Assembly (NCBI GenBank): GCA_004296455.1
Contig: AP018280.1
Coordinates: 620,001 to 684,000 of the forward strand
Direction of reading: 5' to 3'
DNA length: 64,000 bases
Origin: Calothrix sp. NIES-4101
GTDB taxonomy: Bacteria > Cyanobacteriota > Cyanobacteriia > Cyanobacteriales > Nostocaceae
Below, piece by piece: positions 8,701 through 52,351 of this stretch. A model generated the notes under the pieces. The model saw only the letters and a program-made list of their open reading frames with translations, made no database searches and was not told the DNA's origin. How positions within the stretch are numbered: the first letter of the stretch is position 1; every line of letters begins with the position of its first letter. A program made the position numbers and the translations under genes.

Positions 8701-8780
8701 GGCTGTTGACTTTGTTGGTTTTAAGGCACCATTGCTTCATACAATAATAGTGTCGTTAATACTTAGCACATTCAAAGCCC

Positions 8781-9032: not shown

Positions 9033-9037
9033 AAGCT

Positions 9038-10339: not shown

Positions 10340-10378
10340 ACTTTTACCATGTCAAAAGGCACAGAGTCAACAGCCTAG

Positions 10379-33259: not shown

Positions 33260-33291
33260 AGTTTAAATTGTCTAGGTGAGTGGAGAGTCAA
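33260..33291 (-). promoter_or_regulatory. MerR-type promoter 1
   Basis: Minus strand: -35 TTGACT, a 20-bp spacer beginning CTCCACTCACC, -10 TAAACT. The dyad is partly degenerate. It drives the short HMA gene at 33180. Confidence 0.6.
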
Positions 33292-33399: not shown

Positions 33400-33807
33400 T
33401 TAATTAATAATGGGGCAAATTGTTGGATGATATGTTTCGGATTGAATTTCCCAGCCAGAAAGCATCCCTGACAAATCTTGTCTCAAAATAAGTAATTGCT
33501 GAATTTGATCATCAATAGCTTGTACCTTATCCTCAAGCTTGATTTTTATATGTTCACACGGTAATTCTCCCTCATCATGAACATTCAAAAATTCTTTGAT
33601 TTCGGCTAAAGTTAAACCCAGACTTTGGGCGCGTTTAATAAAGTGCAGGCGAGCTAAAACATCAGTGTTAAATAATCTAAAACCACCCTCAGTTCTGCCT
33701 GATGATTTGAGTAGACCAAGCTCCTCATAGTAGCGAATGGTTTTAATCGGTACTCCACTTTCTTTAGCAACTACACCAATCTGTTTTGACTTTTCTTGAA
33801 CTAGCAT
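33400..33807 (-). CDS. MerR-family metal regulator 1
   Basis: The protein has 135 residues. The N-terminal winged HTH is typical (IGVVAKESGVPIKTIRYYEE, LGLLKSSGRTEGGFRLF). A long dimerisation helix follows, and metal-site cysteines are in ELPCEH (about residue 82) and at the C-terminus (TICPII). The early Cys at the start of the helix fits regulators of divalent or soft metals (ZntR/MerR-type). It is about 85% similar to the second MerR gene at 39432. A MerR promoter at 33840 precedes it, so it autoregulates. It probably controls all eight sites listed here. Confidence 0.9.
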   Translation of the reverse strand: MLVQEKSKQIGVVAKESGVPIKTIRYYEELGLLKSSGRTEGGFRLFNTDVLARLHFIKRAQSLGLTLAEIKEFLNVHDEGELPCEHIKIKLEDKVQAIDDQIQQLLILRQDLSGMLSGWEIQSETYHPTICPIIN

Positions 33808-33839: not shown

Positions 33840-33871
33840 ATCCTAGATTCTCCAGTCAGATGGAGAGTCAA
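33840..33871 (-). promoter_or_regulatory. MerR-type promoter 2
   Basis: Minus strand: -35 TTGACT, 20-bp spacer with the dyad CTCCA-TCTGAC-TGGAG, -10 TAGGAT. It lies 33 bp before the first MerR gene. The overlong spacer is the hallmark of MerR activation. Confidence 0.75.
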
Positions 33872-33963: not shown

Positions 33964-36900
33964 TCAGGGGAGTACGTCAACTCTTGATTGTTTTGCTAAC
34001 TTACCTGCTTGATTCCTTAACTTTGGTACACCTACAAACAGTGAGCGAATTTGGGTAATCACGATATACAGGATAGGTACTACAAACAAACTCAAGAAAG
34101 TTGCAACGAACATTCCACCAAAGACAGCAGTACCAAGAGATTGGCGACTAGCTGAACCTGCACCTGTAGCCACAGCAAGCGGCCAAATTCCCAGTAGAGT
34201 GGAAATAGCAGTCATGAGAATTGGTCGTAAGCGTTCTCCAGAAGCTTTCACGGCGGCTTTGGTAATTGAAAAACCCTGTTCGCGTAATTGGTTAGCAAAT
34301 TCGACAATTAAAATCGCATTTTTACTAGCTAACCCAATTAACATCACTAAACCGACCTGACAGTAAACATCGTTATACAAGCCACGCCATGATTGAGCTA
34401 ACAATGCTCCTAAAACCGCTAAGGGAACTGATAATAAAATAATTAAAGGGTCAACGAAGTTATTGTATTGAGCAGCTAGAACTAAGAAAACAAAGAAAAT
34501 TCCTAGACCAAAAATAATTGGTGCTTGACCGCCAGACTCTAATTCTTCTAAAGAAATACCCGACCATTCGTAGCCCATATTTTTTGGTAAGACAGTAGCA
34601 GCTAAATTTTTCATCGCTTCTATTGCTTGTCCAGAGCTAAAACCAGGAGCGGCTGCACCATTAATTTCAATTGACCGATACAGATTATAGTGATTAATTG
34701 TTTGCGGCCCGGTGGTTGGTGTAACCTTCACCAAACTACTGAGGGAAATCATCTCACCCCGTCCGGAACGCACATATAGTTGTCCAATATCTTCTGGGTT
34801 AGAGCGAAACTGTTGATCTGCTTGGACATAGACTCGGTACGTGCGACCAAACGCATTAAAGTCGTTGACATAGCGGGAACCGATGAAAGTTTGTAATGTG
34901 GTAAAGATATCTCTGACAGGGACTTGTAAGGCTTCGGCTTTTTCTCGATCTACTTCGATAAGTAACTGGGGTGCGTTAGCGGTGTAGGTACTGAAGACTC
35001 CTTGCAGTCCTGGTGTTTGATTTGCTTTACCGATTAAATCGTGGCTGATTTTGACTAAATTATTGATATCACTATTATTGCGATCACCTCTATCTTGTAG
35101 TTGAAAAACAAAACCACCTACACTTCCTAAACTTTGAATAGTCGGAGGATTTACCGCAAACACGGCTGCATCTTTAATTGCTGACAGTCCACCTCTAGCC
35201 CGATTTACAATTGCTGATGCAGTTTGTTCGGCGGTTTTTCTTACATCCCAAGATTTTAGCGGTGCAAATATCAAGCCTCGGTTGGGAGTGTTACCACTAA
35301 AACCAACACCACCCATTGCAAAAGTACCTTGAATCTCTGGAATTTTCAGCAGTTCTTTTTCTGCTTGCTTCGCAACTTCACGGGTGTAGTTGAGTGAAGT
35401 GCCATCTGGCCCCTGCATTAAGTTAATAAAATAGCCTTGGTCTTCTTCTGGTAAAAATGCTGTGGGGACGCGCAGGTAAAGCCAGCCTGTCCAAACCAAA
35501 GATGCAATAAATAGAACCAAAACAATGATTTTGAAGTTGATCAGCAATCTGAGAACTTGTTGATATCCTTTTTGTATCCAGTTAAGCAACCAATTAATCG
35601 CCCCGAAAATCCAGCCTGGTAAACCGCGCGGTTTTTGGGTTTTCCGCAACAACATAGCCGCCAAAGCAGGAGTGAGGGTAATCGCGTTAAAAGTTGAAAG
35701 TACAATTGAGAATGCGATCGTTAGCGCAAATTGTTTATATAGTTGTCCTGTTGTTCCGGGGAAGAATCCCACAGGAACAAATACAGCCAAAAGTACGAGA
35801 GATGTAGCAATCACCGCCCCAAATAGTTCGTGCATTGATTGGGATGCAGCTTTATGGGGGCTTAAACCTTTTTCTTGAATCAACCGAGTGACATCTTCAA
35901 CAACAACGATCGCATCATCTACAACCATGCCACTTGCTAAGGTTAAACCAAACAAAGTCAAGCTGTTAAGTGAAAAATCGAAAACCTTAACAAAGGCAAA
36001 CGTCCCAATTAAAGAAACCGGAATTGTAATTGCAGGAATGATGGTAGTGCGCCAGTCTTGCAAGAAAATAAAAATTACTATGACAACCAGCACAATTGCT
36101 TCTAATAAAGTCTTGACAACTTCCCGCCGAGATGCTTCAACAAACAGTGAGGAATCATAAGGAAATTCATATTTCAAACCAGGTGGAAAGTCCTCTGCAA
36201 TTCGCGCCATTTCCGCTTTTACCGCTTTGGCAATATTTAAAGCATTGCTTCCAGGAACTTGCAGAATTTGATAGCCGACAGCAACGTGACCACTATAGCG
36301 AGCAAAGGAACTGTAATTTTCTGCTCCAAGTTCAGCACGACCAACATCTTTAAGCTTAACTAGTGTGCCATCTGTACCCGCTTTGATGACCATGTTTTCA
36401 AATTCGTCAGCTTCTTTGAGTCGTCCTTGAGTTTGCAACTCAATTTGATACATTTGCCCATTTGGTGCGGGTGGCTGTCCAATACTCCCAATACCTAACT
36501 GTAAGTTTTGTTGGTGAAGTGCGTTAATTACGTCTTCAGTCGTGAGTTTGCGATTAGCAAGTTGAGTCGGGTCAAGCCACAACCGCATCGCATAGCGGCG
36601 ATCGCCAAAAGTCGCAATGTTCCCGACACCTTTAATGCGTCTGAGGCGGTCTAAAACGTAAAGGTCGGCGTAGTTACTAATAAAAGTATCATCGTACTTA
36701 TCGCCTTCACTATACATAGCCATCGCTAAGACGATACCACTGGATTGTTTTGTGACAGAAACACCTGTTTGTCGGACAACTTCTGGCAGTTTTGGTTCCG
36801 CAAGCAAGACGCGATTTTGCACATCAGCAGCCGCAGTATCAATGTCATAGCCTTGGTCAAAAGTAACGATGATGTTGCTATTACCGTCACTGCTGCTGGT

Positions 36901-37143
36901 TGAGGTGATATATTTCAAACCTTCAACACCATTAATTTGGCGTTCTAGAACTGTTGTGACTGTATCTTCTACAACTTGGGCGCTAGCACCAATATAATTA
37001 GCGGTGACATTGATTTGTACGGGGCTGATATCTGGGTACTGCTCTACTGGTAGTAGCGGAATGCTGATTATGCCTACCATGAGCATGACGAGAGCGCAGG
37101 CGATCGCAAATACAGGTCGCTTAATAAAAAAATTCGCAAACAT
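33964..37143 (-). CDS. RND multidrug-type efflux pump (AcrB/HAE-1 family)
   Basis: The protein has 1,059 residues, full length. The N-terminus MFANFFIKRPVFAIACALVM and the DISPVQINVTANYIGASAQV stretch are characteristic of HAE-1 RND pumps. TM4 carries ASGMVVDDAIVVVED with the Asp pair for proton relay. The C-terminal helices hold GLVMLIGLASKNAILIVEF. It exports hydrophobic compounds through a tripartite complex. It lies downstream of its fusion protein and an HMA chaperone, all leftward behind MerR promoter 3, so it is unusual in being tied to metal control. No outer-membrane factor is present. Confidence 0.9.
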   Translation of the reverse strand: MFANFFIKRPVFAIACALVMLMVGIISIPLLPVEQYPDISPVQINVTANYIGASAQVVEDTVTTVLERQINGVEGLKYITSTSSSDGNSNIIVTFDQGYDIDTAAADVQNRVLLAEPKLPEVVRQTGVSVTKQSSGIVLAMAMYSEGDKYDDTFISNYADLYVLDRLRRIKGVGNIATFGDRRYAMRLWLDPTQLANRKLTTEDVINALHQQNLQLGIGSIGQPPAPNGQMYQIELQTQGRLKEADEFENMVIKAGTDGTLVKLKDVGRAELGAENYSSFARYSGHVAVGYQILQVPGSNALNIAKAVKAEMARIAEDFPPGLKYEFPYDSSLFVEASRREVVKTLLEAIVLVVIVIFIFLQDWRTTIIPAITIPVSLIGTFAFVKVFDFSLNSLTLFGLTLASGMVVDDAIVVVEDVTRLIQEKGLSPHKAASQSMHELFGAVIATSLVLLAVFVPVGFFPGTTGQLYKQFALTIAFSIVLSTFNAITLTPALAAMLLRKTQKPRGLPGWIFGAINWLLNWIQKGYQQVLRLLINFKIIVLVLFIASLVWTGWLYLRVPTAFLPEEDQGYFINLMQGPDGTSLNYTREVAKQAEKELLKIPEIQGTFAMGGVGFSGNTPNRGLIFAPLKSWDVRKTAEQTASAIVNRARGGLSAIKDAAVFAVNPPTIQSLGSVGGFVFQLQDRGDRNNSDINNLVKISHDLIGKANQTPGLQGVFSTYTANAPQLLIEVDREKAEALQVPVRDIFTTLQTFIGSRYVNDFNAFGRTYRVYVQADQQFRSNPEDIGQLYVRSGRGEMISLSSLVKVTPTTGPQTINHYNLYRSIEINGAAAPGFSSGQAIEAMKNLAATVLPKNMGYEWSGISLEELESGGQAPIIFGLGIFFVFLVLAAQYNNFVDPLIILLSVPLAVLGALLAQSWRGLYNDVYCQVGLVMLIGLASKNAILIVEFANQLREQGFSITKAAVKASGERLRPILMTAISTLLGIWPLAVATGAGSASRQSLGTAVFGGMFVATFLSLFVVPILYIVITQIRSLFVGVPKLRNQAGKLAKQSRVDVLP

Positions 37144-37283: not shown

Positions 37284-38630
37284 CTACTGTTCAGGGAGAA
37301 TGGGAGTACCATCTCTTAAGTTGAGTAAGCCGGAAACAACAATTTTCTCGCCTGGGGTTAAACCTTTCAGCACTTGATACTGATTACCCTGAATACTACC
37401 TAGCTCTACGGGTTTGAGGCGTGCTACTAACTGCGATCGCTTGGGTGATGATTCAGCGACATAAATAAAGGTTTCTGCACCCAAACGGATGACAGTTGAA
37501 GTAGGAATTAATACGCCTGGGCGTTTGTCCCAAATCACTTTCGCTCTAACAAATTGGTCGGCTCGCAACTGTCTGCGGGAATTATCAAACAATGATTTGA
37601 CTAAGACTGACTGAGTATCATTGGCTGTATTGGGAGCTATGAAAAATATGCGACTGTTTCCGAGATTTTTACCTCGTTCGTCAATTAACTGCAATGTCAT
37701 TCCGGGACGCAATCGGGTTGCTTGCTGAACTGGTACGGAAATATTGACTTCTAGAGTTTGATTTTCGGTAATAGTTGCCAATTGAGTAGAGGTATCGACA
37801 AAATCACCAATTTTGATGGGTATATCGCCTACTTTGCCAGCAAAAGGAGCGGTAATTTTGTAGTATTTTAACTGGACTTGTTGTTGCTTAGTAGCTGCTT
37901 GAGCTTGTTGTACAGCTTTTTCGGCTTGCGAGATAGCAGCTTTTTGGGCTTGAATTTGGGCATCAATTGCATTCAAACTGGCTTTAGCTGTAGCTAGTTT
38001 GTTAGCGTATTGATCCTGAGTCTGACGAGATATCGCACCTTCAGCAGCTAGATAAGAGTACCTTTGATAGTCCAACTGATTTAACCTGACATCAGCTTGC
38101 TTAGATAAACGTTCAGCCTCTATGGATTTGAGAGTCGCTTTGGCATTTTCGAGTTGCGATCGCGCCGCCATTGCAGCTGCATCCACACCACTAACTGCTG
38201 CTTTTTGTTCTTCCGCATCTATTTGCAGAATGGGTGTACCTGCTTTTACTTCATCCCCTGCTTGTACAAAAATCTGACTGATTTGTCCTTGAATTCTCGG
38301 ACGGAGAGCGACTGAACGACGTGATTGGAGGTTAGCAATAAAATTGGAACTTTGTTCAATTGTGCTTGCTTTTAGGGAGGATAATTTTACTTGTACGCCA
38401 GGAGGTGCAGCAGCTGTAGCTACTGGGGGTTTTGCACTGGGAGTAGAGACACGCCAAACTGCAATACCTCCACTTGCTAATAGTAGAGTGAGCAATAGCC
38501 AAAGCCAAGGTCGCCGCGATCGCGGTGATGGTGATTCAGCCTCTAAATCATCGTCATCTAGAATGGGAGTCTGATTTTCCAAATCATCATCTAAATCTAG
38601 AATAGGAGTTTGGTTTTCCAACGGGTTCAT
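37284..38630 (-). CDS. RND membrane-fusion protein (AcrA-like)
   Basis: About 448 residues from ATG 38630; an earlier start at 38705 would add 25 residues. It has an acidic N-terminal tail with a repeated NQTPILD/DDDLE unit, then one membrane anchor (PWLWLLLTLLLASGGIAVW). Lipoyl halves (GQISQIFVQAGDEVKAGTPI; APFAGKVGDIPIKIGDF) flank a coiled-coil hairpin. The beta barrel and membrane-proximal domain end with GEKIVVSGLLNLRDGTPI. It partners the pump gene, 140 bp downstream. The acidic cytosolic tail is unusual. Confidence 0.85.
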   Translation of the reverse strand: MNPLENQTPILDLDDDLENQTPILDDDDLEAESPSPRSRRPWLWLLLTLLLASGGIAVWRVSTPSAKPPVATAAAPPGVQVKLSSLKASTIEQSSNFIANLQSRRSVALRPRIQGQISQIFVQAGDEVKAGTPILQIDAEEQKAAVSGVDAAAMAARSQLENAKATLKSIEAERLSKQADVRLNQLDYQRYSYLAAEGAISRQTQDQYANKLATAKASLNAIDAQIQAQKAAISQAEKAVQQAQAATKQQQVQLKYYKITAPFAGKVGDIPIKIGDFVDTSTQLATITENQTLEVNISVPVQQATRLRPGMTLQLIDERGKNLGNSRIFFIAPNTANDTQSVLVKSLFDNSRRQLRADQFVRAKVIWDKRPGVLIPTSTVIRLGAETFIYVAESSPKRSQLVARLKPVELGSIQGNQYQVLKGLTPGEKIVVSGLLNLRDGTPILPEQ

Positions 38631-38736
38631 GTTTGAGCAATTTCCTGTAATTTCAATTGAGTCGAAATAATTCCTAATTAATAGATTTTTATCAACAGTT
38701 AGCAAAAGCTAACTGTTGATATTTTTTTGAAAAACC

Positions 38737-39006: not shown

Positions 39007-39038
39007 AGCTTAAATTCTCCATCTGCCTGGAGAGTCAA
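39007..39038 (-). promoter_or_regulatory. MerR-type promoter 3
   Basis: Minus strand: -35 TTGACT, 20-bp spacer with CTCCA-GGCAGA-TGGAG, -10 TAAGCT. It drives the HMA chaperone, AcrA-like and AcrB-like genes. Confidence 0.75.
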
Positions 39039-39431: not shown

Positions 39432-39854
39432 TTATTCATGTTCAATAATCGGACAAATTGTTGAATGGTCATTATCAGGCTTTATTTCCCAACCAGAAAG
39501 CAACCCTGATAATTCTTGTCTCAAAATCAGTAATTGCTGAATTTGTTCATCAATAGCTTTTACCTTATCTTCTAGTTTAATTTTGATATGCTCACAAGGT
39601 AATTCTCCACTATCATGAACATTTAAAAAATCCTTAATCTCTGATAAGCTTAACCCTAAACTTTGAGCGCGTTTAATAAAGTGTAGTCGTTCCAAAACAT
39701 CAGAGTTAAATAATCTAAATCCGCCTTCTGTTCTTCCGGATGATTTGAGTAGACCAAGTTCTTCATAGTAGCGAATAGTTTTAATTGGTACTCCGCTGTC
39801 TTTGGCAACTACACCAATCTGTTTTGCTTCTGCTTGAGCTAACATACTTAGCAA
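39432..39854 (-). CDS. MerR-family metal regulator 2
   Basis: The protein has 140 residues (137 from the second ATG). The HTH (IGVVAKDSGVPIKTIRYYEE) and GGFRLF wing are nearly identical to regulator 1, with the same ELPCEH and TICPII cysteines. It differs mainly in the first and last few residues. Its own MerR promoter lies at 39884-39915. Two near-identical regulators with similar operators imply either redundancy or different metal specificity set by the C-terminal tail (HSTICPIIEHE here). Confidence 0.9.
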   Translation of the reverse strand: MLSMLAQAEAKQIGVVAKDSGVPIKTIRYYEELGLLKSSGRTEGGFRLFNSDVLERLHFIKRAQSLGLSLSEIKDFLNVHDSGELPCEHIKIKLEDKVKAIDEQIQQLLILRQELSGLLSGWEIKPDNDHSTICPIIEHE

Positions 39855-39883: not shown

Positions 39884-39915
39884 ATACTAAACTCTCCAGT
39901 TAGCTGGAGAGTCAA
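39884..39915 (-). promoter_or_regulatory. MerR-type promoter 4
   Basis: Minus strand: -35 TTGACT, 20-bp spacer with CTCCA-GCTAAC-TGGAG, -10 TAGTAT. It precedes regulator 2. Confidence 0.75.
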
Positions 39916-39941: not shown

Positions 39942-40880
39942 TTATGAGAAATGAATTTGAGTGGACACCTTTTCTTCACTAGCGTCTGCGGCTTGGACGG
40001 AAATTGCACCTCGAAACATCTTCATGCCGCAGGTGAAAGCATATTCACCTGGTTTTTCTGGAGTGAACTCAATTGAGGTTAATTGATTGAGTGGTAAATC
40101 AGCAGCAATACCAAAATCAGGAATTAGCACTTTCGCAAGGCAATTACTGGGATTTTCGCGCAGAAAGTTGAGCTTTACTCTTTGCCCCGCTTGGACAACA
40201 ACATGATTTGGTGCATATCCCTTATCTACATTGATGGTGGTTTTCTGAATTCTTTGCTCTACAGTTGTTTCATGCTCATCGATTGAACTGAAGGATTTGG
40301 GTTGTGGTTCTTTCATCGTTTTTTCTTCCTTTATGACTGTTGATTGAATGTCTGAAGCTTCGGCTTGAATTTCACCACGAAACATATTCATGCCACAGGT
40401 AAAGAGATAAGTTCCGGCTTGTTTGGGTGTAAATTCCACAGTGGTTACTTGATTAAGCGGTAAATCTGCGGCAATGTGAAAGTCTGGAATCACGACTTTT
40501 TCTAAGCAACTGCTGGGATCTTTGCGTTCAAATTTCAGTCTTACTGGTTTCCCTACTTGCACTACAATTCGACTGGGATCGTATCCCCCATCAACAATGA
40601 CACTTACTTCCTGAACGCTTCCACCTGTTGCAACTGCTTTTTGAGACTTAGGTTTACTGAGTAAAAACCACCAAAGTTGTAAGCCGATTAGTCCTAATCC
40701 GCCGAGAGTGACGGCTATTTTGTTCCCTAGTGGCTGATCGATACGTTGAAATTGATTGGTTTGGACTGTTGCCGATGAGTGCGTTTGGTGGGATTTTTGT
40801 GCGACTGCTTCACTAGATGCAATTGAGAATACAATTCCTAAACTGGCTATACTACCGATGAGTGCTGTTTTGTTTACCAT
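39942..40880 (-). CDS. Double cupredoxin-like envelope protein
   Basis: About 312 residues from ATG 40880, with GGAG 8 bp upstream. The signal sequence (ALIGSIASLGIVFSIASSEAVA) and a second hydrophobic segment (VTLGGLGLIGLQLWWFLL) are followed by two cupredoxin-like repeats. Each has GY-P--VVVQ-G, a KL-FLREN/ERKDPSSCL segment, DFHIAADLPLNQ and FTCGMNMFRGEI. The Cys, His and CGM residues are likely copper ligands. It is the last gene of the operon with the Cu ATPase and 26-residue peptide, so a periplasmic copper-binding role is probable. The repeat similarity suggests internal duplication. Confidence 0.8.
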   Translation of the reverse strand: MVNKTALIGSIASLGIVFSIASSEAVAQKSHQTHSSATVQTNQFQRIDQPLGNKIAVTLGGLGLIGLQLWWFLLSKPKSQKAVATGGSVQEVSVIVDGGYDPSRIVVQVGKPVRLKFERKDPSSCLEKVVIPDFHIAADLPLNQVTTVEFTPKQAGTYLFTCGMNMFRGEIQAEASDIQSTVIKEEKTMKEPQPKSFSSIDEHETTVEQRIQKTTINVDKGYAPNHVVVQAGQRVKLNFLRENPSNCLAKVLIPDFGIAADLPLNQLTSIEFTPEKPGEYAFTCGMKMFRGAISVQAADASEEKVSTQIHFS

Positions 40881-40917
40881 TGAAAAATCTCCGAAGTGCA
40901 TGTGGGTAAGTTGTTAG

Positions 40918-40998: not shown

Positions 40999-43001
40999 TG
41001 TTATTTCCTCTATGCAAGTGTTTTAGGTTGGAAGTTGCGTAAACGCAGTGCATTAGTGACTACAGAAACTGAACTAAAGGCCATTGCTGCACCGGCGATA
41101 ATAGGATTCAGTAACCAGCCGAAGAAGGGGAAGAGAATCCCGGCGGCGATGGGAATACCAGCAACGTTGTAGATGAAGGCGAAGAATAAGTTTTGGCGAA
41201 TGTTGCGAATTGTGGCGCGGCTGAGTTGAATTGCTGTAACTATGCCTTGTAAATCGCCAGAAATTAAGGTGATGTCACTAGCGGCGATCGCTACATCTGT
41301 ACCTGTACCAATTGCAATTCCCACATCGGCTTGAGCTAAAGCTGGTGCATCATTGATACCATCGCCAACCATCGCCACAATTTTACCTTCTGCTTGTATT
41401 GCTTGCACTGTCGCCGCTTTTTGGTCAGGACGGACTTCTGCTAAGACTCTTTTGATACCAACTTCATGGGCAATACTTTCTGCTGTGCGGCGGTTATCAC
41501 CTGTGAGCATGACAACTTCTAAACCGAGTCTTTGCAACGCTCTCACAGCCTGGGTGGAGGTGGGTTTAATGGCATCAGCAATCCCCATCAATCCTTTGAT
41601 TTCACCGTCAACTGCTAACCACACGGCTGTTTTACCCAGGTATTCTAAGCGTTCTTTATCTTGTTGCAAGGCTTGAGTGTTAATGCTCAACTCTTCCATC
41701 CAACGTTGTGTACCAATTTGCACAAGACGGTTAGAAACGATACCTTGGACACCACTACCTGCTACAGCTTCAAAATCTTTGACATCTGCTAATGATACTT
41801 CCTGAGTTTGGGCATATCGAACAACTGCTTCTGCCAAGGGATGTTCTGAATTGCGTTCTAAGGATGCGGCTAGTTGTATCAGCTTCAGTTCGTTGCCGTT
41901 ACGTGTACCGTCAACTGTGAGAAAATCTGTAACTGTGGGTTTACCTTGAGTAATTGTACCTGTTTTGTCCAAGACAATTGTTTGAATCTGGTGTGCTATT
42001 TCTAAGCTTTCAGCTCCTTTAATTAAAATACCGTTTTCTGCACCTTTACCAGTACCGACCATCACAGAGGTTGGTGTAGCTAAACCCAAGGCACAAGGAC
42101 AAGCGATAATTAACACTCCAACGGTGGTAATCAACGCCAGGGTGACATTGCCCATGATGTTGTACCAAATTATAAAAGTGAGGATAGCGATCGCAATTAC
42201 CGCAGGGACAAACCAGCCTGTAACTTGGTCTGCTAGTCTTTGAATTGGGGCTTTTGAGCCTTGAGCCTGCTGCACTAATTGCACAATCTGCGCCAATACA
42301 GTATCTTTGCCTACTCTTGTCGCTCGAAATTTGAAACTACCAGTTTTGTTGATAGTTGCGCCGATGACTTCATCTCCTGGTTGCTTTTTCACAGGTACAC
42401 TTTCACCAGTCACCATCGCTTCATCAACTGTGGATGTCCCGTCAACTACTTCGCCATCAACAGGAATTTTCTCCCCAGGGCGCACCAGCACCACATCACC
42501 AATTTCTACTTGCTCAATGGGTACATCTATTTCTCGTCCGTTACGAATCAACCGTGCAGTTTTCGCCTGTAAACCAATAAGTTTGCGGATAGCTTCTGAG
42601 GTTTGCCCTTTGGCGCGGTTTTCAAATAGTCGCCCTAGTAAAATCAAGGTAATGACGACAGCACAAGTTTCATAATACACATCTGGCATCAATCCCTGAG
42701 CAATAAAAAAGCCGGGAAACAAAGTAGCAAATAGGGAATAAAAATATGCTGCACTTGTACCTAAAGCAATTAAGGTATCCATTGTCGCGGCATGACGCTT
42801 AAAAGCTTTCCAGGTATTAACGTAAAAGGAGTAACCACACCAAAACTGTACAGGAGTTGTGAGGACTAATTGCACCCAAGGATTATGCAACCATGTGGGA
42901 ATAAAAGGTAGGTTTAACCTAGGCTGTTGACTTTGTTGGTTTTAAGGCACCATTGCTTCATACAATAATAGTGTCGTTAATACTTAGCACATTCAAAGCC
43001 C

Positions 43002-43258: not shown

Positions 43259-44560
43259 ATGGAATTAAATGTGAAGGGTCATCATTATGATGCCAAAATA
43301 ATTCAGCAAGCACTCTTACTTTTAATTGAATGTGGTATCAGTTTTAGAGGAGTAGAAAAAGTATTTGAGTTGTTTAATAATTATGAAGAGCAGGCAACTC
43401 CAAGTTTCAGTTGTGTGAGAAAGTGGTTGGCTCGGATTGGAATATATGAATTGACAAAAGAGAAAGAATATCGTGATGATTGGATATTTATTGTCGATTT
43501 GACATTAGAATTAGGGAAACAAAAAGCGTTGGTAATTTTAGGCGTTTCACAGCAGCATATTGAAGAAAATGTGATGAAGCAGAAAAGAGGGTTGGCGCAT
43601 GAAGACGTGAAAATTTTCGGATTAGAAATTATGGATTCTACGAAAGGAGAGATTATAGAATCAAAACTAGAAAAAATCAGTCAAAAAGTCGGCGTACCAG
43701 TACAAATAGTAGCGGACAATGGTAGCGACCTAGCTCGTGGAATCAAGCTATACCAGCAAAATCACCCAGATATTATCTATACCCATGATGTGACTCATGC
43801 AATGGCTTTACTTTTAAAATACCAGCTAGATTCGGATGAGAGATATCAGTCATTTATTCAAAAATGTAATATCAGCAGACAAAAATTACAACAAACAGAT
43901 TTATCATTTTTATCTCCTCCAACACAACGTTCTCAATGTCGTTTTTTTAATGTAGAAAGGTTGACAAATTGGGGGATTAAATTACTAAATTCTTCTCCAG
44001 ACACTTTAATTAAATTAATGCCAGATTCTGACCCTTCGCTGATTACTCAGAAAATAGTAGATAAATTGGGATGGTTAGTTGACTACGAATCAGACCTAAT
44101 TCAATGGAACCAAATGGTGTCACTCACACGAGGTGTTGAAACTCAACTCAAACAATCAGGAATTAGTCATAAAACTCTCGATTTTTTTGAACAAAATAAA
44201 GTTATATTTGATGATAATTCTCTCCAGAAACTTCAACAAAGTATTTTGGGTTATTTGTCTGTTCAATGCCGAAAAATTAAAAACCAATCTACTTTTTTAG
44301 CTACTTCTGATGTGATTGAGTCATTGTTTGGAAAATATAAGCAATTTTCCGCGCGCTGTCCATTTAAAGAAATGGGTCAGATGCTGCTAACCATCTGTTT
44401 ATCTACTATGAATCTGACGACAGCTTTGATTAAAAACGCACTTGAAACAATTAGTTTTTCAGACGTTGAAGCATGGCTATCTGAAGTTTTTGGTCAATCC
44501 ACACTATCAAAACGAAAAACGTTGTTTTCAGGGGATTGTGACGACATTAAAAGTGCATGA
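43259..44560 (+). CDS. IS-A orfB transposase (copy 2)
   Basis: A 433-residue catalytic part identical to the product at 9038-10339, with the same acidic motifs. With a clean target duplication this copy represents a recent insertion and is probably active. Confidence 0.8.
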   Translation: MELNVKGHHYDAKIIQQALLLLIECGISFRGVEKVFELFNNYEEQATPSFSCVRKWLARIGIYELTKEKEYRDDWIFIVDLTLELGKQKALVILGVSQQHIEENVMKQKRGLAHEDVKIFGLEIMDSTKGEIIESKLEKISQKVGVPVQIVADNGSDLARGIKLYQQNHPDIIYTHDVTHAMALLLKYQLDSDERYQSFIQKCNISRQKLQQTDLSFLSPPTQRSQCRFFNVERLTNWGIKLLNSSPDTLIKLMPDSDPSLITQKIVDKLGWLVDYESDLIQWNQMVSLTRGVETQLKQSGISHKTLDFFEQNKVIFDDNSLQKLQQSILGYLSVQCRKIKNQSTFLATSDVIESLFGKYKQFSARCPFKEMGQMLLTICLSTMNLTTALIKNALETISFSDVEAWLSEVFGQSTLSKRKTLFSGDCDDIKSA

Positions 44561-45000
44561 ACTTTTACCATGTCAAAAGGCACAGAGTCAACAGCCTAGG
44601 TTTAACCCTGTCATCATTGGTAGTGAGCCAATCACCAGCACTATGCTAATGATGCCCCCTACTGTTACTTTTTGTTGTAAATCACGGGATTCTTTCAGGC
44701 GATATCTTTTCTCTTCATCATCTTCTCCCGCCATCAAATTTTGTTCTTGGAGGGGATAGGCAGAATAGCCTGCTGCATCTACTGCCTCTTGTATAGCTTG
44801 TAAATCTGTTTTTCTGGGGTCATAATCAACTCTTGCCTGTTCTGCCCCAAAATTCACACTACATTCATTTACACCAGGAACAGAACTAATCGCATCTTCA
44901 ATACTTCTAGCGCAGGAAGCGCAACTCATACCGCGTAGTTTAAGTATGGCATTCTCCATTTCAAAGCTCCAATTATCAAGTCGTGTTCAAGACTGATTTC

Positions 45001-45032
45001 ATCTTGAATGCTCCAGTGAACTGGAGTGTCAA
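45001..45032 (-). promoter_or_regulatory. MerR-type promoter 5
   Basis: Minus strand: -35 TTGACA, 20-bp spacer with CTCCA-GTTCAC-TGGAG, -10 CAAGAT. It precedes the Cu ATPase gene at 44959. Confidence 0.75.
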
Positions 45033-45141: not shown

Positions 45142-45173
45142 TTGACTCTCCAGTGAACTAGATATTTGAAGAT
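45142..45173 (+). promoter_or_regulatory. MerR-type promoter 6 (degenerate dyad)
   Basis: Plus strand: -35 TTGACT, 20-bp spacer CTCCA-GTGAAC then TAGAT in place of TGGAG, -10 GAAGAT. It points at the YdcZ/phytochelatin synthase genes from 45319. The rest of the 45033-45318 gap shows no gene with a good start. Confidence 0.5.
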
Positions 45174-45318: not shown

Positions 45319-45834
45319 ATGAGCATCATCCATTTACCCTCAACAAAAACCACTGTTTCAAAATCTCCCACTGTTTCAACCTTAATTCGTCCCTCTTCAC
45401 CTTCTCTGTTAATTGCTTTCTTTAATGGAGCCGTACTGCCTATTCAAGCAGCAATTAATGCTCAGTTAGCTCGGTCAATAGGTTCTTTCCTTCTAGCTGG
45501 AGATATTTCCTACTTCGTAGGCATTATAGTTCTCCTAAGTCTTCTATTAACTGGCAAATTCGGACGACCAAGTTGGTCTGCGTTACCCAAAGCACCTTGG
45601 TGGGCTTTTTGTGGCGGATTGGTGGGTGCTTGGTACATAACCTCAAGTGCATACTTGACAACTAACTTGGGAACTACACTCACAATTGCGTTGATTGTCA
45701 GTGGTCAATCTTTCATGGGGATGCTGGTAGATCATTTTGGATGGCTCTCAGTGCAGCCTCGTCGTCTCACGCCTAACCGACGCATTGCTGGAGCATTATT
45801 ACTCTTAGCCGTTTTCTTTCTCACTTTGAAATAA
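45319..45834 (+). CDS. YdcZ/DUF606-family DMT permease, subunit 1
   Basis: The protein has 171 residues. After a serine/threonine-rich N-terminus come about five membrane helices. The family motifs FFNGAVLPIQAAINAQLAR, KAPWWAFCGGLVGAWYITSS and GMLVDHFGW are present. YdcZ proteins are half-size drug/metabolite transporters that pair with a second subunit. The neighbour at 45859 is such a partner but is broken. It may be co-transcribed with phytochelatin synthase, so glutathione-, phytochelatin- or metal-complex movement is conceivable; no substrate is known. Confidence 0.8.
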   Translation: MSIIHLPSTKTTVSKSPTVSTLIRPSSPSLLIAFFNGAVLPIQAAINAQLARSIGSFLLAGDISYFVGIIVLLSLLLTGKFGRPSWSALPKAPWWAFCGGLVGAWYITSSAYLTTNLGTTLTIALIVSGQSFMGMLVDHFGWLSVQPRRLTPNRRIAGALLLLAVFFLTLK

Positions 45835-45858: not shown

Positions 45859-46510
45859 ATGGAAATTTTGCTAGCGATCGCTGGTGCTGGTTCTGCTGGC
45901 GGACTGCTTGCTTATGGTAGTGCTGCTAATGTTCGATTAATGCAAGTAATTCGTTCTGCGATCGGTGCTGCTACTGTTAATTTCACTATTGGATTTACAG
46001 CTTTAGCACTACTGATGCTGCTGGGAGTCATCGGCCCGCTATCCCTCAACCAATTGTCTCAAGCTCCTTGGTGGGCTTTCTTTGGCGGTGCTTTGGGAGC
46101 AACTTACGTAACGCTCAATACTCTACCCCTGTTAAGGTGTACCAATAATGTACTAGCCAGAAGTCCCATTCTTACGTTCTACCTCTAATCGCAGAACCTA
46201 AATTTTTAACGCAAGCATTATTTTTTGCCTTCAATTTTTAATGGATGCGGTGCTGAAACCCCTATAAATCGTCAGTACAAATGTTCACCTTAACAGGGGT
46301 ACGCTCAATACTCTCAGCATTCCTAAATTAGGTTTGACAAACACAACAATGGCTGTAGCATTTGGACAGATGCTGATGTCACTGATCATTGACCAGTTTG
46401 GTTTATTTGGGGTTATGAGTCATATCGTCAGTGCGCCCAGATTATTAGGAACTGGGCTTTTATTAGCCGCAGTTATACTTACACAATTAGATGCTAAACA
46501 CAACAGATAA
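45859..46510 (+). pseudogene. YdcZ/DUF606-family permease, subunit 2, interrupted by a short element
   Basis: The coding parts are 45859-46124 and 46315-46510. Removing the 176-bp element and one copy of its 14-bp duplication restores a 153-residue frame. The joined product has AGSAGGLLAYGSAANVRLMQ, QAPWWAFFGGALGATYVTL, then SIPKLGLTNTTMAVAFGQML and the VDHFG-like LIIDQFGLFGV motif. It is homologous to the gene just upstream. The insertion stops translation after 109 residues and would break a heterodimeric permease. Confidence 0.8.
46125..46300. mobile_element. 176-bp MITE-like element with 15-bp ends and 14-bp target duplication
   Basis: The ends are ACCCCTGTTAAGGTG and CACCTTAACAGGGGT, perfect. 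ACGCTCAATACTCT is duplicated at 46111-46124 and 46301-46314. There is no coding capacity. The 14-bp duplication is long; IS4-family members give around 10-13 bp, so a relative of these may supply the transposase. Confidence 0.85.
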
Positions 46511-46575: not shown

Positions 46576-47760
46576 ATGGATACTGAAGGATTTTATCGTC
46601 GTCCCTTACCTCCTCCTAGTATTTCTTTTGCTTCCCCTGATGGACGACAAATCTTTCAAGAAGCGATCGCATTAGGGGGTATGGAGGGTTATTTTCCCCT
46701 TGCCGAACAATTTCATACCCAATCAGAGCCAGCTTTTTGCGGGTTAGGTACTTTAGTCATGGTTCTCAACGCCTTATCAATTGATCCTGGGCGAATTTGG
46801 AAAGGTGTATGGAGATGGTACGGTGAAGAATTTCTCGAATGTTGCCAACCACTGAGTACAGTTAAAAATCAAGGTATTACTTTTGACGAATTTGTCTGTT
46901 TAGCACGTTGTAATGGAGCTAAAGTACAACCCTATCGTTACGACCAAAGCAACCTACAAGAGTTCCGAGAAGCTGTTAAGCAAGCCACCTTTCTACCTCA
47001 AGGTTTACATTTAGTTGTTTGCTATTCACGACAAGTTGTAGGACAAACTGGGGATGGACACTTTTCACCAGTGGGAGGATACCATCCGGAACGTGACCTT
47101 GTGTTGCTTTTAGATGTAGCTCGTTTTAAATACCCACCTCACTGGGTTCCCTTAAATGTTTTATGGAATGCTCTACAACCCATTGATACTGCAACTGGTA
47201 AGTGTCGTGGCTATATCCTTATTTCTAATAAGAATATTTCCAGTCAAAACTTCTTTCATGTAGGAGTTGATATACATCAATGGGCGATAGTTGTGCCTTA
47301 TTTTAAGGATATTGCACCAACTTTACTGGCTCAAGAACAGCCAGATTCATTATTTGCGTTACTAGATACGATATTAATAAATTTGCCACTAGAGTTAACT
47401 TCTGTTCTCTGCATTACTGGAGATAATCTATCAAATGAATTTTTTGAGATATGGTGCTGTTTATTGGAAGAAATTAAATCGCATCCTTTATGGACAGTTG
47501 CTCAAGACGTACTGTTGACTAGAAATTTCCCTGAAACTTCTGTTACAGGAAAGTGGCAACTCCAAGAGAAAAACTTAGCTTATTTGCTAACAATGTTTCT
47601 TTTATCTTGTCCAGAGGAAATTTATCAACCGCTAAATGAGCATTTGCGTTCTCAGATATATCAACTCCGAGAAATTGATAGGCTGCCGCCACTGATGCGT
47701 CAGGAAGTAGTTAGCTTAAAAGAACAAATGTTAGCGTTACAGAATTTATTTCAAACATGA
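46576..47760 (+). CDS. Phytochelatin synthase, full-length plant-like form
   Basis: About 394 residues from ATG 46576 (a TTG at 46558 is less likely). The catalytic domain is plant-like: FYRRPLPPPSISFASPDGRQ, TQSEPAFCGLGTLVMVLNAL, DVARFKYPPHWVPLNVLW. The triad is C55, H162 (QTGDGHFSPVGGY) and D180 (LLLDVARF), nearly the plant numbering. Cysteines at 89/90, 108 and 112 also match. A roughly 170-residue C-terminal domain follows, ending LPPLMRQEVVSLKEQM, as in eukaryotic enzymes. It makes phytochelatins from glutathione, which chelate Cd, Cu or Zn. The short cyanobacterial homologues lack this domain. It lies behind the YdcZ genes, likely under MerR promoter 6. Confidence 0.93.
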   Translation: MDTEGFYRRPLPPPSISFASPDGRQIFQEAIALGGMEGYFPLAEQFHTQSEPAFCGLGTLVMVLNALSIDPGRIWKGVWRWYGEEFLECCQPLSTVKNQGITFDEFVCLARCNGAKVQPYRYDQSNLQEFREAVKQATFLPQGLHLVVCYSRQVVGQTGDGHFSPVGGYHPERDLVLLLDVARFKYPPHWVPLNVLWNALQPIDTATGKCRGYILISNKNISSQNFFHVGVDIHQWAIVVPYFKDIAPTLLAQEQPDSLFALLDTILINLPLELTSVLCITGDNLSNEFFEIWCCLLEEIKSHPLWTVAQDVLLTRNFPETSVTGKWQLQEKNLAYLLTMFLLSCPEEIYQPLNEHLRSQIYQLREIDRLPPLMRQEVVSLKEQMLALQNLFQT

Positions 47761-47924: not shown

Positions 47925-48284
47925 CTAGATTTTTTTGATAATAAAGTCTACATCACTTGAAATACTCTGTGATGAGTTAGATTTAGCATAGTGATGTTGT
48001 GCAAGCCAAGCACGAACTTCCTCTTCAGATAACGCATGGAAACGATTTCCGATTAGTGAATCATCAATAATCCACCAGATATTTTCCATGCGATCGCTTG
48101 TCTGCCAAATAAAAGCAGTTGAACTATCCATCAAAGCTAGAGCGATCGCTCTAGCCGCATGATTCAAAAGTTGGCTGGCTTCTTGAAATCGAGGTCTAAA
48201 TCCATCAGAAATATCTGAAGGTGTCCATTCTTGTTTTTGGTAAGTTTGAAAATCATCAAAAAATTTACTGGGTATTATTCTCAT
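47925..48284 (-). CDS. Unknown 119-residue protein in the MerR regulon
   Basis: The start at 48284 is chosen because it lies downstream of MerR promoter 7; a longer start at 48374 would place the promoter in the coding region. Visible features: MRIIPSKFFDDFQTYQKQEW, ARAIALALMDSSTAFIWQT, EEEVRAWLAQHHY, and a lysine C-terminus. There is no signal peptide, membrane segment or metal motif, and I do not recognise the family. The promoter ties it to metal response, so a stress-protective or regulatory role is inferred only. Two HIP1-like sites lie in the gene. Confidence 0.6.
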   Translation of the reverse strand: MRIIPSKFFDDFQTYQKQEWTPSDISDGFRPRFQEASQLLNHAARAIALALMDSSTAFIWQTSDRMENIWWIIDDSLIGNRFHALSEEEVRAWLAQHHYAKSNSSQSISSDVDFIIKKI

Positions 48285-48312
48285 AACTAACTTTTCGCAA
48301 CTCAATAATTTA

Positions 48313-48344
48313 ATCTTTAATGCTCCATTTAACTGGAGAGTCAA
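48313..48344 (-). promoter_or_regulatory. MerR-type promoter 7
   Basis: Minus strand: -35 TTGACT, 20-bp spacer with CTCCA-GTTAAA-TGGAG, -10 AAAGAT. It drives the unknown gene at 48284. Confidence 0.75.
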
Positions 48345-48462
48345 GAGATCACGAGAAAAACTTTTATGAAGCAAAACAGAGTTATAAATTTAGATAAAGA
48401 AAGTTAATTTGTAATTAATATCAAAGAAATTCATACAAATTATTAAGATTGTATTCATAAAC

Positions 48463-48494: not shown

Positions 48495-48522
48495 ACTAGT
48501 AAAGTAATTGTTGGTGGAGATT

Positions 48523-48792
48523 ATGACAAAACGTCAAATTGAAATATTTACAGCCAATTGTCCTCTTTGTGACGAAACAGTCCGTACAGTGCAAGAATTA
48601 GCTTGCTCAAATTGTGAAGTATTAGTCTATGACTTGCATTCAAGTCAAGAAAAGCAAACTTATCTAGCGAAAGCTGAACATTATGGAGTTCAGTCAGTGC
48701 CAGCGATCGCTATCAACGGAGTGTTAGTGCTGACAGGTAAACCAACTCGTGACCAATTGCTAGCAGTGGGTGTGGGTCAACCACTGAATTAA
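48523..48792 (+). CDS. Small thioredoxin-fold protein (CPLC motif)
   Basis: About 89 residues from ATG 48523 (GGTGGAG upstream). It has a beta strand then a CxxC redox motif (IEIFTANCPLCDETV), a second Cys pair (ACSNC) and the cis-proline segment (YGVQSVPAIAINGVLVLTG) of a glutaredoxin or thioredoxin-like fold. Similar small proteins occur in metal-resistance clusters, where they may reduce thiols or bind metal. MerR promoter 8 sits just upstream, so it is probably metal-induced. Confidence 0.8.
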   Translation: MTKRQIEIFTANCPLCDETVRTVQELACSNCEVLVYDLHSSQEKQTYLAKAEHYGVQSVPAIAINGVLVLTGKPTRDQLLAVGVGQPLN

Positions 48793-50173: not shown

Positions 50174-52351
50174 ATGGCAAGAACTCACGAGCATCACGGA
50201 CATAGACACGCAAGCCTTGTACCCGAACCAGGCGGGATGGCGAAAGACCCTATCTGTGGGATGACAGTACCTAAAGCCACATCCTTGAGGACAGAAAGAG
50301 GTGGACGCGCTTACTATTTTTGTAGCCAAACTTGCTTAAACACATTTTTAGATCCTGAGCGGGAACTCAAATCTATGCGTACTCGCGTCGCTGTTGCGAT
50401 GACGGGGGTACTATTTTTAGCAATTCTGCGAGCGGCTGCATTTCTGGGACTGGCAGCAGGCATAAGTCTCTTAAGCTGGGTGCCGATTTCGGCTCTACCC
50501 TGGTTCACCTGGGGAATGTGGCTTTTCATCTTGGCAACACCTGTACAGTTTATTGGCGGCTGGTCATTTTACGTCGGAGCGTGGAATGCCATCAAAAGCC
50601 GCAATGTAAACATGGATTTCCTAATTGCTTTAGGAACTAGTGTTGCCTATTTCTATAGTGTGGCCGTAATTTTCTTTCCTAATTTTCTACCTGTTCAAGT
50701 TGAGCAGCGCGACGTTTATTTTGAAGTTTCTGCCGTCGTCATTGCCTTTGTTTTATTAGGCAAGTATATGGAAGAAATTATCAAAAAGAACTCATCAGCA
50801 GCAGTACGCAAACTTCTAGATTTAAAACCTGCCACCGCCAGAGTTATCCGCGATGGCATGGAGATGGAAATTCCGGCAGAGCAAGTAATGGTAGGCGAAA
50901 CCGTGATTGTCCGTCCGGGGGAAAAAGTACCAACGGATGGAGTTGTGCTGGATGGATCTTCATCTGTGGATGAGTCAATGCTAACAGGGGAGTCACTACC
51001 AGTAGAGAAGCAAGCCGGAGCGGCGGTGATTGGTGGTACTTTGAACCGAACAGGAGCTTTCAGTTTCCAAGCGACTCGTGTCGGCTCTGAAACTGCTCTG
51101 GCTCAAATCATCAAAATTGTGGAGGAAGCCCAGACAAGTACAGCTCAAGTCCAACGGTTGGCGGATAAAGTGACGGGTTATTTTGTGCCTGCGGTTGTGG
51201 GAATTGCCGTGCTTGCTTTTCTTGGGTGGTTACTTGTCGGGAACTTTCCCCAAGCTTTACTCGCATTTATTGCTGTGTTAATTATTTCTTGCCCCTGTGC
51301 TTTGGGTATTGCTACTCCCGCCGCGTTGATGGTTGGTGTGGGTAAGGGCGCAGAAGCCGGGATTTTGATTCGGGGTGGTGAAATTTTAGAACGAGCTGAA
51401 AAGCTTTCCACTGTTATTTTTGACAAAACTGGAACCTTGACTCGTGGTGAGCCTAGTGTGACGGATATTGTAGCCTTGGCAGAACGCCCAAAAGATGAAA
51501 TTCTCCGGTTGGCTGCGGCTGTAGAAGCGGGTTCAGAACATCCTTTGGGTGAAGCAATTGTGCGCGCCGCCAAACACCAAATGCTAGATATTCCGAAAGT
51601 GAATAATTTTGAGGCAATTCCCGGACATGGGATTCGGGGAGAAATCAATCGCGATCGCATTTTACTTGGTAATCGCCGCTTGTTTAGAGAGCAAGGCTAT
51701 CAGATAAATCCGGCAACAGAAGAGATACTAACTCGCCTAGAATCTGATGGTAAAACAGCCATGCTGGTTGGTTGTAATGGTTTGCTGATGGGGATTGTAG
51801 CAGTAGCCGACACCATCAAACCTGAAGCCAAAGAAGCGATCGCTGCTTTGCGACGAGAAAAAGTCAAAGTCGTCATGCTCACTGGAGATAACCAGCGTAC
51901 TGCCGAAGCGATCGCCCGTCAACTAGGAATCGATAAGGTAATTGCTGAGGTATTACCCGGCGATAAAGCCCAAGTCGTCAAAGATATTCAACGACGCGGC
52001 GAAGTTGTGGCAATGGTGGGAGACGGTGTTAATGATGCACCCGCCTTAGCAACTGCTGACATTGGGATTGCGATTGGTTCTGGTGCAGATGTGGCTAAGG
52101 AAACAGGCGGGATCATTTTGGTGAAAAACGATGTGCGGGATGTTGTTACCTCGATTCGCCTATCTCGTGCCACGATGCTCAAAATTAAACAAAACTTATT
52201 CTGGGCATTTATTTACAACTCCATTGGCATTCCTATCGCTGCCTTCGGTTTACTCAACCCAATGATTGCCGCAGCTGCGATGGCTTTGAGTTCCTTGTCA
52301 GTAATTGTTAATTCATCGCTGTTGAAAGGATTTAAGTTATCCAGCACATAG
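50174..52351 (+). CDS. P1B-type heavy-metal ATPase with N-terminal His stretch and YHS domain
   Basis: The protein has 725 residues. A His-rich start ([12 protein letters not shown]) and a YHS domain ([27 protein letters not shown]) replace the HMA domain. Eight membrane helices are expected. The CPC motif ([13 protein letters not shown]), [12 protein letters not shown] phosphorylation site, SEHPLGEAI and [12 protein letters not shown] hinge are complete. The class exports Cu(I) or related soft metals. It is intact and may compensate for the broken ATPase at 41010. The cluster continues with small membrane genes in the same direction. Confidence 0.92.

What the first reader, a model, noticed from the sequence alone, without database searches (positions are those of the whole stretch)
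46576..47760. Plant-like, two-domain phytochelatin synthase on a cyanobacterial mobile replicon
The triad sits at C55/H162/D180, almost the plant numbering, with the same neighbouring motifs and extra cysteines (89/90, 108, 112), plus a C-terminal domain of about 170 residues. Known cyanobacterial homologues are short single-domain proteins. A full-length form in a metal island suggests acquisition from, or common origin with, eukaryotic enzymes, and a plasmid-borne chelation pathway.
Basis: partly seen in the sequence, partly recalled or inferred. Interest (0 to 1): 0.9.

Follow-up and report, generated by a model that had tools for sequence, protein, structure and literature searches.

The report
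Two-domain phytochelatin synthase in metal regulon
A cyanobacterium carries a full-length, plant-like enzyme for making metal-binding peptides inside a transferable metal-resistance island, where a metal-sensing switch appears to turn it on; the enzyme class was already described, but the switch and the island setting seem new.

Summary
ORF 46576-47760 (+) is a 394-residue phytochelatin synthase (PF05023 E 4e-89) with triad C55/H162/D180, Cys 89/90/108/112 and a 174-residue C-terminal domain homologous to the plant PCS C-domain but lacking the plant Cys-rich stretch. It groups with other cyanobacterial E-type enzymes, far from the short Nostoc type. Two-domain forms also occur in Myxococcota, so bacterial ancestry is at least as likely as capture from a eukaryote; my trees cannot settle the direction.

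Two-domain cyanobacterial PCS is in print (Ferrari 2024), and a strain with a 401-aa PCS makes phytochelatins under Cd (Bellini 2020). The gene lies on a 7.24-Mb chromosome-sized contig, not a mobile replicon, although related islands sit on conjugative plasmids of Aulosira and Scytonema.

New here: the PCS transcription unit starts with a MerR-type promoter box, one of seven in the island; genome-wide, six of seven close matches lie here. Most likely the enzyme makes phytochelatins from glutathione as the chelation arm of a metal-induced regulon. In this strain an IS splits the ATPase gene and a MITE-like insert splits the gene upstream of PCS, so expression is uncertain.

The parts
46576..47760 (+). 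phytochelatin synthase, two-domain, 394 aa
46576..47235 (+). catalytic papain-like domain (residues 1-220), PF05023
47236..47757 (+). C-terminal helical domain (residues 221-394), PF09328-like, no Cys-rich stretch
45142..45162 (+). MerR-type promoter box (TTGACT, 20 bp, GAAGAT) facing ydcZ1-ydcZ2-pcs
45319..45834 (+). YdcZ1, DMT family membrane protein, first gene of the likely PCS transcription unit
45859..46510 (+). YdcZ2, DMT family, interrupted by a 174-bp insert (end inferred from the plasmid copy)
46126..46299 (.). MITE-like insert, 14-bp terminal inverted repeats, 14-bp target duplication
45012..45032 (-). MerR-type promoter box facing the Cu-type ATPase
44588..44959 (-). N-terminal piece (HMA domain) of a Cu-type P-type ATPase split by an IS
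43259..44560 (+). transposase ORF of the IS that splits the ATPase (homology to the plasmid copies stops at 42919 and resumes at 44597)
41010..42890 (-). main piece of the Cu-type P-type ATPase
39942..40901 (-). cupredoxin-domain protein
39895..39915 (-). MerR-type promoter box ahead of the merR gene (near-palindrome, also read at 39888 on +)
39432..39854 (-). MerR family regulator
39018..39038 (-). MerR-type promoter box (3 mismatches), 313 bp upstream of the RND adaptor gene
37284..38705 (-). RND periplasmic adaptor
33964..37143 (-). RND permease (TIGR00915 above cut-off)
33851..33871 (-). MerR-type promoter box ahead of the second merR gene
33400..33807 (-). second MerR-like regulator (not scanned for domains; similar to the first)
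33271..33291 (-). MerR-type promoter box; about 60 bp or less upstream of the lipoprotein gene on the two plasmids, here separated from it by about 640 extra bp
31688..32569 (-). lipoprotein-like protein whose relatives stand next to PCS in L048 and L050
48324..48344 (-). MerR-type promoter box ahead of the likely start of the small ORF 47925-48374
48508..48792 (+). thioredoxin-like small protein
50174..52351 (+). second Cu-type P-type ATPase with YHS domain

Best explanation
This is a true phytochelatin synthase (gamma-glutamylcysteine dipeptidyl transpeptidase) working as the intracellular chelation arm of a metal-inducible resistance regulon. Steps: (1) a metal ion binds a MerR protein, which activates promoters with a 20-bp spacer, including the one ahead of ydcZ1-ydcZ2-pcs [sequence shown, regulation inferred]; (2) glutathione from GshA/GshB acylates Cys55 of PCS with gamma-Glu-Cys, releasing glycine [genes shown, chemistry from the family]; (3) the metal-bis-glutathionate second substrate enters the pocket lined by Q49, E51, R152, Q157, F184, K185 and Y186 and takes the acyl unit, giving PC2 and longer chains [residues shown, reaction inferred]; (4) phytochelatins buffer the metal while P-type ATPases and RND pumps remove it [inferred]. 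The C-terminal domain, homologous to the plant one but without its Cys-rich stretch, probably stabilises the enzyme or tunes its activity; the Cys-based brake of plants is probably replaced by transcriptional control [inferred]. The cognate metal is not settled; the two ATPases lean to copper or silver.
For: Triad and family match. The second-substrate residues named by PMC3855540 (abstract and passages read) are kept: Q49, E51, R152, F184, K185, Y186 and Q157; AtPCS1 Y55 is F54 here, as in the recalled wheat and fission yeast rows. E51 and F184 separate it from the short type, which has N and Y in 13 of 13 rows. PF09328 rings in 22 of 40 long bacterial proteins at E 0.01 or better; the profile of 15 cyanobacterial C-domains matches two recalled plant C-domains at 96.9%, E 1.4e-10, decoy 0.1%. 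gshA and gshB are present. MerR boxes: 8 matches with up to 3 mismatches in the window against 0.01 expected (two of the eight are the two readings of one palindrome, so 7 places); genome-wide 7 matches with up to 2 mismatches, 6 in this island, 0 for the reversed control. The box ahead of ydcZ1-pcs has 0-1 mismatch in 8 of 8 other distinct island copies scanned (L034-L039, L112, L089). A PCS-facing box also stands ahead of PCS in the diverged L041 (1 mismatch) and ahead of a lipoprotein-PCS pair in L050 (2 mismatches).
Against: No activity or expression was measured. In this strain ydcZ2 carries an insert between promoter and PCS, so PCS may be poorly transcribed. The in vitro activity reported for Geitlerinema was only about 0.1% of that of Arabidopsis PCS. 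Of 14 non-island cyanobacterial E-type loci scanned, 10 have no box with up to 4 mismatches upstream of PCS in the sequence held (L002, L004, L040, L042-L047, L049; some hold only 0.4-1.5 kb upstream), and in L048 and L051 the better-matching orientation faces away from PCS. The MerR protein falls below every named NCBIfam cut-off, so the metal is unknown.
Confidence: 0.7

Rival explanations
1. The enzyme is mainly a glutathione or glutathione-conjugate peptidase, like the short Nostoc Alr0975, and makes little phytochelatin; its place in the island reflects thiol turnover under stress.
For: Same catalytic fold as Alr0975 (6tho_B, TM-score by target 0.91); low activity reported for Geitlerinema.
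Against: E51 instead of N, F184 instead of Y, four plant-type Cys and a C-domain set it apart from the short type; tree branch 100/100 between the two types; PC2-PC4 found in Geitlerinema.
Confidence: 0.15
2. The cyanobacterial two-domain gene was acquired from a eukaryote (alga or plant).
For: The cyanobacterial E-type rows are sister to the two recalled plant rows in the catalytic tree (98/87); Ferrari 2024 puts cyanobacterial E forms in a branch with most green algae.
Against: The cyanobacterial clade is not inside the plant pair; two-domain relatives are found in Myxococcota, and the bacterial C-domains lack the plant Cys-rich stretch.
Confidence: 0.25
3. In this strain the gene is a passenger of a decaying island and is not expressed in a useful way.
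For: IS inside the Cu-type ATPase, insert in ydcZ2, about 640 extra bp between a box and the lipoprotein gene; neither of the two same-genus genomes searched has the gene.
Against: The PCS frame is intact and 94-97% identical to seven distinct full-length copies in other Nostocales; catalytic and pocket residues are kept.
Confidence: 0.25

Closest known systems
Group 2 ('E') phytochelatin synthases of Nostocales and Oscillatoriales (Ferrari et al. 2024, PMC11314372)
   Same: E four residues before the catalytic Cys, CC and CxxxC cysteines, longer C-terminus; a Scytonema example has the same four Cys numbers (whether it is the NIES-4073 protein, 94% identical to this one, was not checked)
   Different: A sequence study of cyanobacteria and algae; promoter, island, plasmids and myxobacterial relatives are not in the section read
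Geitlerinema sp. PCC 7407 PCS, 401 aa (Bellini et al. 2020, PMC7411734)
   Same: Same architecture if L002 is that gene; PC2-PC4 formed under Cd
   Different: L002 is about 48% identical over residues 4-391; no island gene or box seen in its 3.6-kb locus
Arabidopsis AtPCS1 (sequence recalled)
   Same: Triad numbering offset by one at the Cys only, four Cys, second-substrate residues, C-domain aligns to its end
   Different: Plant C-domain has an extra Cys-rich stretch; MerR control unknown in plants (recalled)
Nostoc Alr0975 (NsPCS; PDB 2btw, 2bu3, 6tho)
   Same: Catalytic fold, triad
   Different: Single domain; short-type relatives have N instead of E and no CC/CxxxC; about 30% identical
MerR-family metal regulons (CueR, ZntR, CadR, MerR; layout recalled)
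   Same: Dyad in an overlong 20-bp promoter spacer, box ahead of merR itself, ATPase target
   Different: Regulator below all named cut-offs; a chelator synthase among the targets

Membership tests
Phytochelatin synthase (EC 2.3.2.15, PF05023) | PF05023 domain with Cys-His-Asp triad | tested here: met
   E 4e-89; C55, H162, D180
Phytochelatin synthase (EC 2.3.2.15, PF05023) | second-substrate pocket residues (AtPCS1 Q50, E52, R152, Q157, F184, K185, Y186) | tested here: met
   all present; AtPCS1 Y55 is F54 here
Phytochelatin synthase (EC 2.3.2.15, PF05023) | metal-activated synthesis of PC2 and longer from GSH | not testable with these tools
   needs an assay; precedent in PMC7411734
Two-domain (group 2, 'E') PCS | E before catalytic Cys, CC and CxxxC cysteines | tested here: met
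   E51; C89, C90, C108, C112
Two-domain (group 2, 'E') PCS | C-terminal domain related to the plant C-domain | tested here: met
   PF09328 E 4.2e-5 but 1.4 bits under its cut-off; profile comparison 96.9%, E 1.4e-10 against two recalled plant C-domains
Land-plant PCS | Cys-rich stretch in the C-domain | tested here: not met
   only C279, C294, C295, C345 after residue 220; the plant stretch falls in alignment gaps
Short Alr0975-type PCS | single domain with N before catalytic Cys | tested here: not met
   394 aa, E51
MerR-type metal regulon | dyad within an overlong -35/-10 spacer | tested here: met
   TTGACW, 20 bp, hexamer with A at position 2 and T at position 6, at 7 of 7 places
MerR-type metal regulon | regulator binds the box in response to metal | not testable with these tools
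   inferred only
Plasmid-borne gene in this genome | lies on a plasmid-sized replicon | tested here: not met
   contig C1 7,235,916 bp with four 16S matches

The most novel reading that the evidence does not exclude
The two-domain phytochelatin synthase is a bacterial invention, shared by Cyanobacteria and Myxococcota, in which (in cyanobacteria) metal control is exerted at transcription by MerR; eukaryotes inherited or captured it from bacteria, lost that switch, and plants added the Cys-rich stretch that now brakes the enzyme after translation. In Nostocales it travels on conjugative plasmids as part of a copper-type resistance regulon, so bacteria exchange a phytochelatin pathway as a resistance trait.
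Probability: 0.35. Interest if true: 0.7.

Novelty: new variant of a known kind. Interest (0 to 1): 0.45.

Why it matters
The statement that all cyanobacterial PCS enzymes lack the C-terminal domain (in PMC7586750, passages read) is already corrected in print (PMC11314372), but what the domain is for remains debated. A bacterial version without the Cys-rich stretch, under a predicted metal switch, is a natural experiment that separates the old part of the domain from the plant add-on. It also offers a tractable, transferable bacterial phytochelatin pathway, and a testable explanation for why one cyanobacterial PCS (Alr0975) behaved as a peptidase and another (Geitlerinema) as a synthase: they appear to belong to two different types.

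Tried and rejected
Rejected: plasmid location in this genome (7.24-Mb contig with four 16S matches). Rejected: chance C-terminal extension. Not usable as proof of origin: the trees. In the catalytic tree the bootstrap had not settled (correlation 0.933), and the long recalled fission yeast row fell with two myxobacterial rows (91/25) instead of with the plants. Four AU tests gave p 0.39 (eukaryotes as one clade), 0.193 (both cyanobacterial types on one side), 0.113 (plants with the other bacteria) and 0.259 (all eukaryotes with the cyanobacterial clade), so none of these alternatives is excluded. A full-length tree of 40 rows joined the three eukaryotes (76/78) and put them next to the cyanobacterial clade (76/83), which differs from the catalytic tree.

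Led nowhere: viral contigs and phage records hold no relative by those searches, so I got no eukaryotic sequence from the databases; the C-domain model (mean pLDDT 89.3) has no PDB match at E 0.001 (best E 2.1); the first dyad patterns missed the boxes, which I then saw by reading the aligned intergenic region. Box controls: none with up to 3 mismatches in 38 non-cyanobacterial loci (489,161 bp; G+C-rich as a rule, so a soft control), and none with up to 4 in 26 short-type loci (94,326 bp) and 8 further loci.

Rows dropped: the catalytic tree used 65 rows: 13 of 26 short-type loci, 17 cyanobacterial E-type rows (one, L051, is a 266-aa form), 32 other bacterial E-type rows and 3 recalled eukaryotes; left out were near-duplicates, fragments and open-ended loci (L035, L038, L039, L046, L047, L055, L061, L064, L075, L085, L089, L090 and repeats of L001-L004). 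Alignment A1 is the window and 39 of 46 long proteins (L035, L036, L038, L039, L046, L047, L060 left out). A3 holds 21 C-domains; L062 and the short C-domains of L054, L055, L057 were left out. Of the matches only the best 30 were fetched, so the two-domain count (4 of 386 genomes: G000, G024, G027, G099) is a lower bound. L037 and L113 are the same plasmid; L003, L039 and L114 appear to be the same contig.

Full report
Observation. The ORF at 46576-47760 encodes 394 residues with the triad C55, H162, D180 and Cys at 89, 90, 108, 112. PF05023 covers residues 6-213 (E 4e-89) and PF09328, the plant C-terminal domain, residues 337-385 (E 4.2e-5, 23.6 bits, just under the 25-bit cut-off). It is the only PF05023 match at E 0.001 in the genome. 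The finding is real.

Place. The window is bases 620001-684000 of a contig of 7,235,916 bp that holds all four 16S rRNA matches, so the gene is on the chromosome-sized contig. Of 72,556 plasmid records 7 have a match and 2 match the whole protein: Aulosira laxa NIES-50 (96.4%) and Scytonema sp. NIES-4073 (93.7%), 216 and 235 kb, both typed conjugative by PLSDB. The island from about 19.9 to 55.0 kb of the window matches the Scytonema plasmid over about 80% of its length at 94% DNA identity; the Aulosira plasmid matches 77% of 36-56 kb at 93% but only 24% of 20-36 kb at 92% in its best place. Two of two same-genus genomes searched lack the gene. A DUF3854 protein lies at 638-1417, with a plasmid match annotated as a CyRepA1 replication protein. 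A transferable island now in a chromosome is the simplest reading.

Family. One scan of genome contigs with patterns from this one sequence gave 57 loci: Nostocales at 94-97%, other cyanobacteria at 52-70%, and many Myxococcota and some Pseudomonadota at 40-60%. Twenty-two of 40 aligned long proteins match PF09328 at E 0.01 or better, best 1.8e-10; as only 15 of the 40 are cyanobacterial, at least 7 of the matches are from other bacteria. Among 386 cyanobacterial genomes 43 have PF05023 and 3 have PF09328 at E 0.01; at least 4 carry a two-domain protein. In the tree of the catalytic domain (65 rows) the two types are split by a 100/100 branch; the window sits with 16 other cyanobacterial E-type rows (92/82; one of them, L051, is a 266-aa form), and this clade joins the two recalled plant rows (98/87). 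The bootstrap had not settled, AU tests reject none of four alternatives, and the full-length tree joins the eukaryotes first, so direction and partner of any transfer stay open.

C-domain. Profile comparison of 15 cyanobacterial C-domains with two recalled plant C-domains: probability 96.9%, E 1.4e-10 over 161 columns; myxobacterial-rich set against plant 76.2%, E 2.2e-5; cyanobacterial against that set 97.9%, E 4.5e-13; DUF305 decoy 0.1%. The plant Cys-rich stretch falls in the gaps. PMC7586750 (abstract and passages read) reports that twin-Cys motifs in the liverwort C-terminus restrain activation by metals. In the 15 cyanobacterial C-domains one Cys (window C345) is invariant, but no twin Cys is; C294-C295 of the window is kept only in its close island relatives among the aligned rows. 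The recalled fission yeast protein is not recognised by PF09328 either, so that model is plant-centred. The AlphaFold model has mean pLDDT 85.8; its catalytic half matches Alr0975 structures, and the C-domain alone has no solved match at E 0.001.

Active site. Residues around the second-substrate pocket, as named in PMC3855540 (abstract and passages read), are kept: Q49, E51, R152, F184, K185, Y186 and Q157, invariant in 40 of 40 rows. E or D at 51 and F at 184 occur in 17 of 17 cyanobacterial and 32 of 32 other bacterial E-type rows against N and Y in 13 of 13 short-type rows. The T48-x-x-E51 motif that has been read as a casein kinase 2 site is thus kept (T; E or D) in 49 of 49 bacterial E-type rows; bacteria are not known to have that kinase (recalled), so the motif probably has an older, structural meaning.

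Regulation. The intergenic region between the ATPase and ydcZ1 has 96% mean column identity over six loci and holds two divergent boxes. TTGACWCTCCAGTNNACTRGA with up to 3 mismatches occurs 8 times in the window (0.01 expected; 0 of 100 shuffles reach 8); two hits are one palindrome, so seven places. Each has TTGACW, a 20-bp spacer and a hexamer with A at position 2 and T at position 6 (7 of 7); an overlong spacer with a dyad is the hallmark of MerR-family activators (recalled). They stand ahead of ydcZ1-ydcZ2-pcs, the ATPase, two merR genes, the RND genes (313 bp upstream), the ORF 47925-48374 and, on the plasmids, directly ahead of the lipoprotein gene; in the window about 640 extra bp separate that box from the lipoprotein gene 31688-32569. 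In the whole genome 7 sites have up to 2 mismatches, 6 of them here, one at 3254805, and the reversed pattern has none. Outside the island, PCS-facing boxes stand ahead of PCS in L041 and ahead of a lipoprotein-PCS pair in L050 (27-36 bp apart, by the start chosen); in L048 and L051 a box lies within about 120 bp of PCS but faces the other way better; ten other cyanobacterial E-type loci have none upstream in the sequence held. The lipoprotein next to PCS in L048 and L050 is 55-58% identical to the window's lipoprotein, which links the two genes independently.

Which metal. Both ATPases score above the copper family cut-off (TIGR01511), but both also pass the cadmium-family one (414.6 and 432 against 313.5); the best solved matches of the first are copper ATPases, 3rfu ahead. 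The MerR protein aligns best with 4ua1, 5gpe, CadR, a mercuric MerR and CueR; it has the Cys shared by those sensors other than CueR, and the Cys of the CPIIE end, but not the Cys between them (my reading; that the first Cys marks divalent-metal sensors is recalled). It passes no named cut-off. The RND pump nearest PCS is of the TIGR00915 type, whereas the one at 25004-28147 is a CusA/CzcA heavy-metal type (TIGR00914). Copper or silver is my best guess, not a result.

State in this strain. The ATPase reading frame is split by a 1.7-kb IS (further copies at 8686-10388 and in the left flank) and ydcZ2 by a 174-bp insert with 14-bp inverted ends and a 14-bp target duplication; uninterrupted copies exist in relatives. 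PCS itself is intact and ends three residues earlier than its island relatives.

Prior art. Two-domain cyanobacterial PCS is in print (PMC11314372, its section 2 read), echoed in PMC12899622 (passages). Searches for PCS with cyanobacteria and C-terminal domain, horizontal transfer and Nostoc, Myxococcota, MerR, conjugative plasmids, phylogeny, and Geitlerinema (listings and abstract starts only, except the papers named) listed no paper whose title or abstract start concerns the regulon, the island or myxobacterial two-domain forms. One search listed 15 of 81 (many hits are the soybean author name Merr.), 15 of 18 and 10 of 12, and the library holds only open-licence papers, so this is not proof of novelty.

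Noticed in passing
window 43259-44560, 9038-10339, and L116 848-2541: Three nearly identical copies (99.8%) of a 1.7-kb IS within about 65 kb; its transposase has no Pfam match at E 0.001.
   Followed up: partly
window 46126-46299: 174-bp MITE-like insert with 14-bp inverted ends and a long 14-bp target duplication; one copy in the window, rest of the genome not searched.
   Followed up: partly
window 31688-32569; L048 6946-7833; L050 7041-7952: His-rich lipoprotein-like family that stands beside PCS in two diverged cyanobacteria and under the same kind of promoter box on the island plasmids; no Pfam family at E 0.001.
   Followed up: partly
window 57333-61754: 1473-residue protein with NACHT-associated N-terminal domains and 14 WD40 stretches.
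   Followed up: no
L116 9191-9263 (contig 609191-609263): tRNA-Phe gene to the left of the island region; possible integration site, not tested for repeats.
   Followed up: no
L089 (Nostoc sp. FACHB-152) near 8001-8093: Island copy in which PCS similarity stops after 31 residues: a natural truncation.
   Followed up: no
window 47925-48374: Small ORF of no known family with its own promoter box; relatives stand beside PCS in the other full island copies and are duplicated in most of them, not seen in L089.
   Followed up: no
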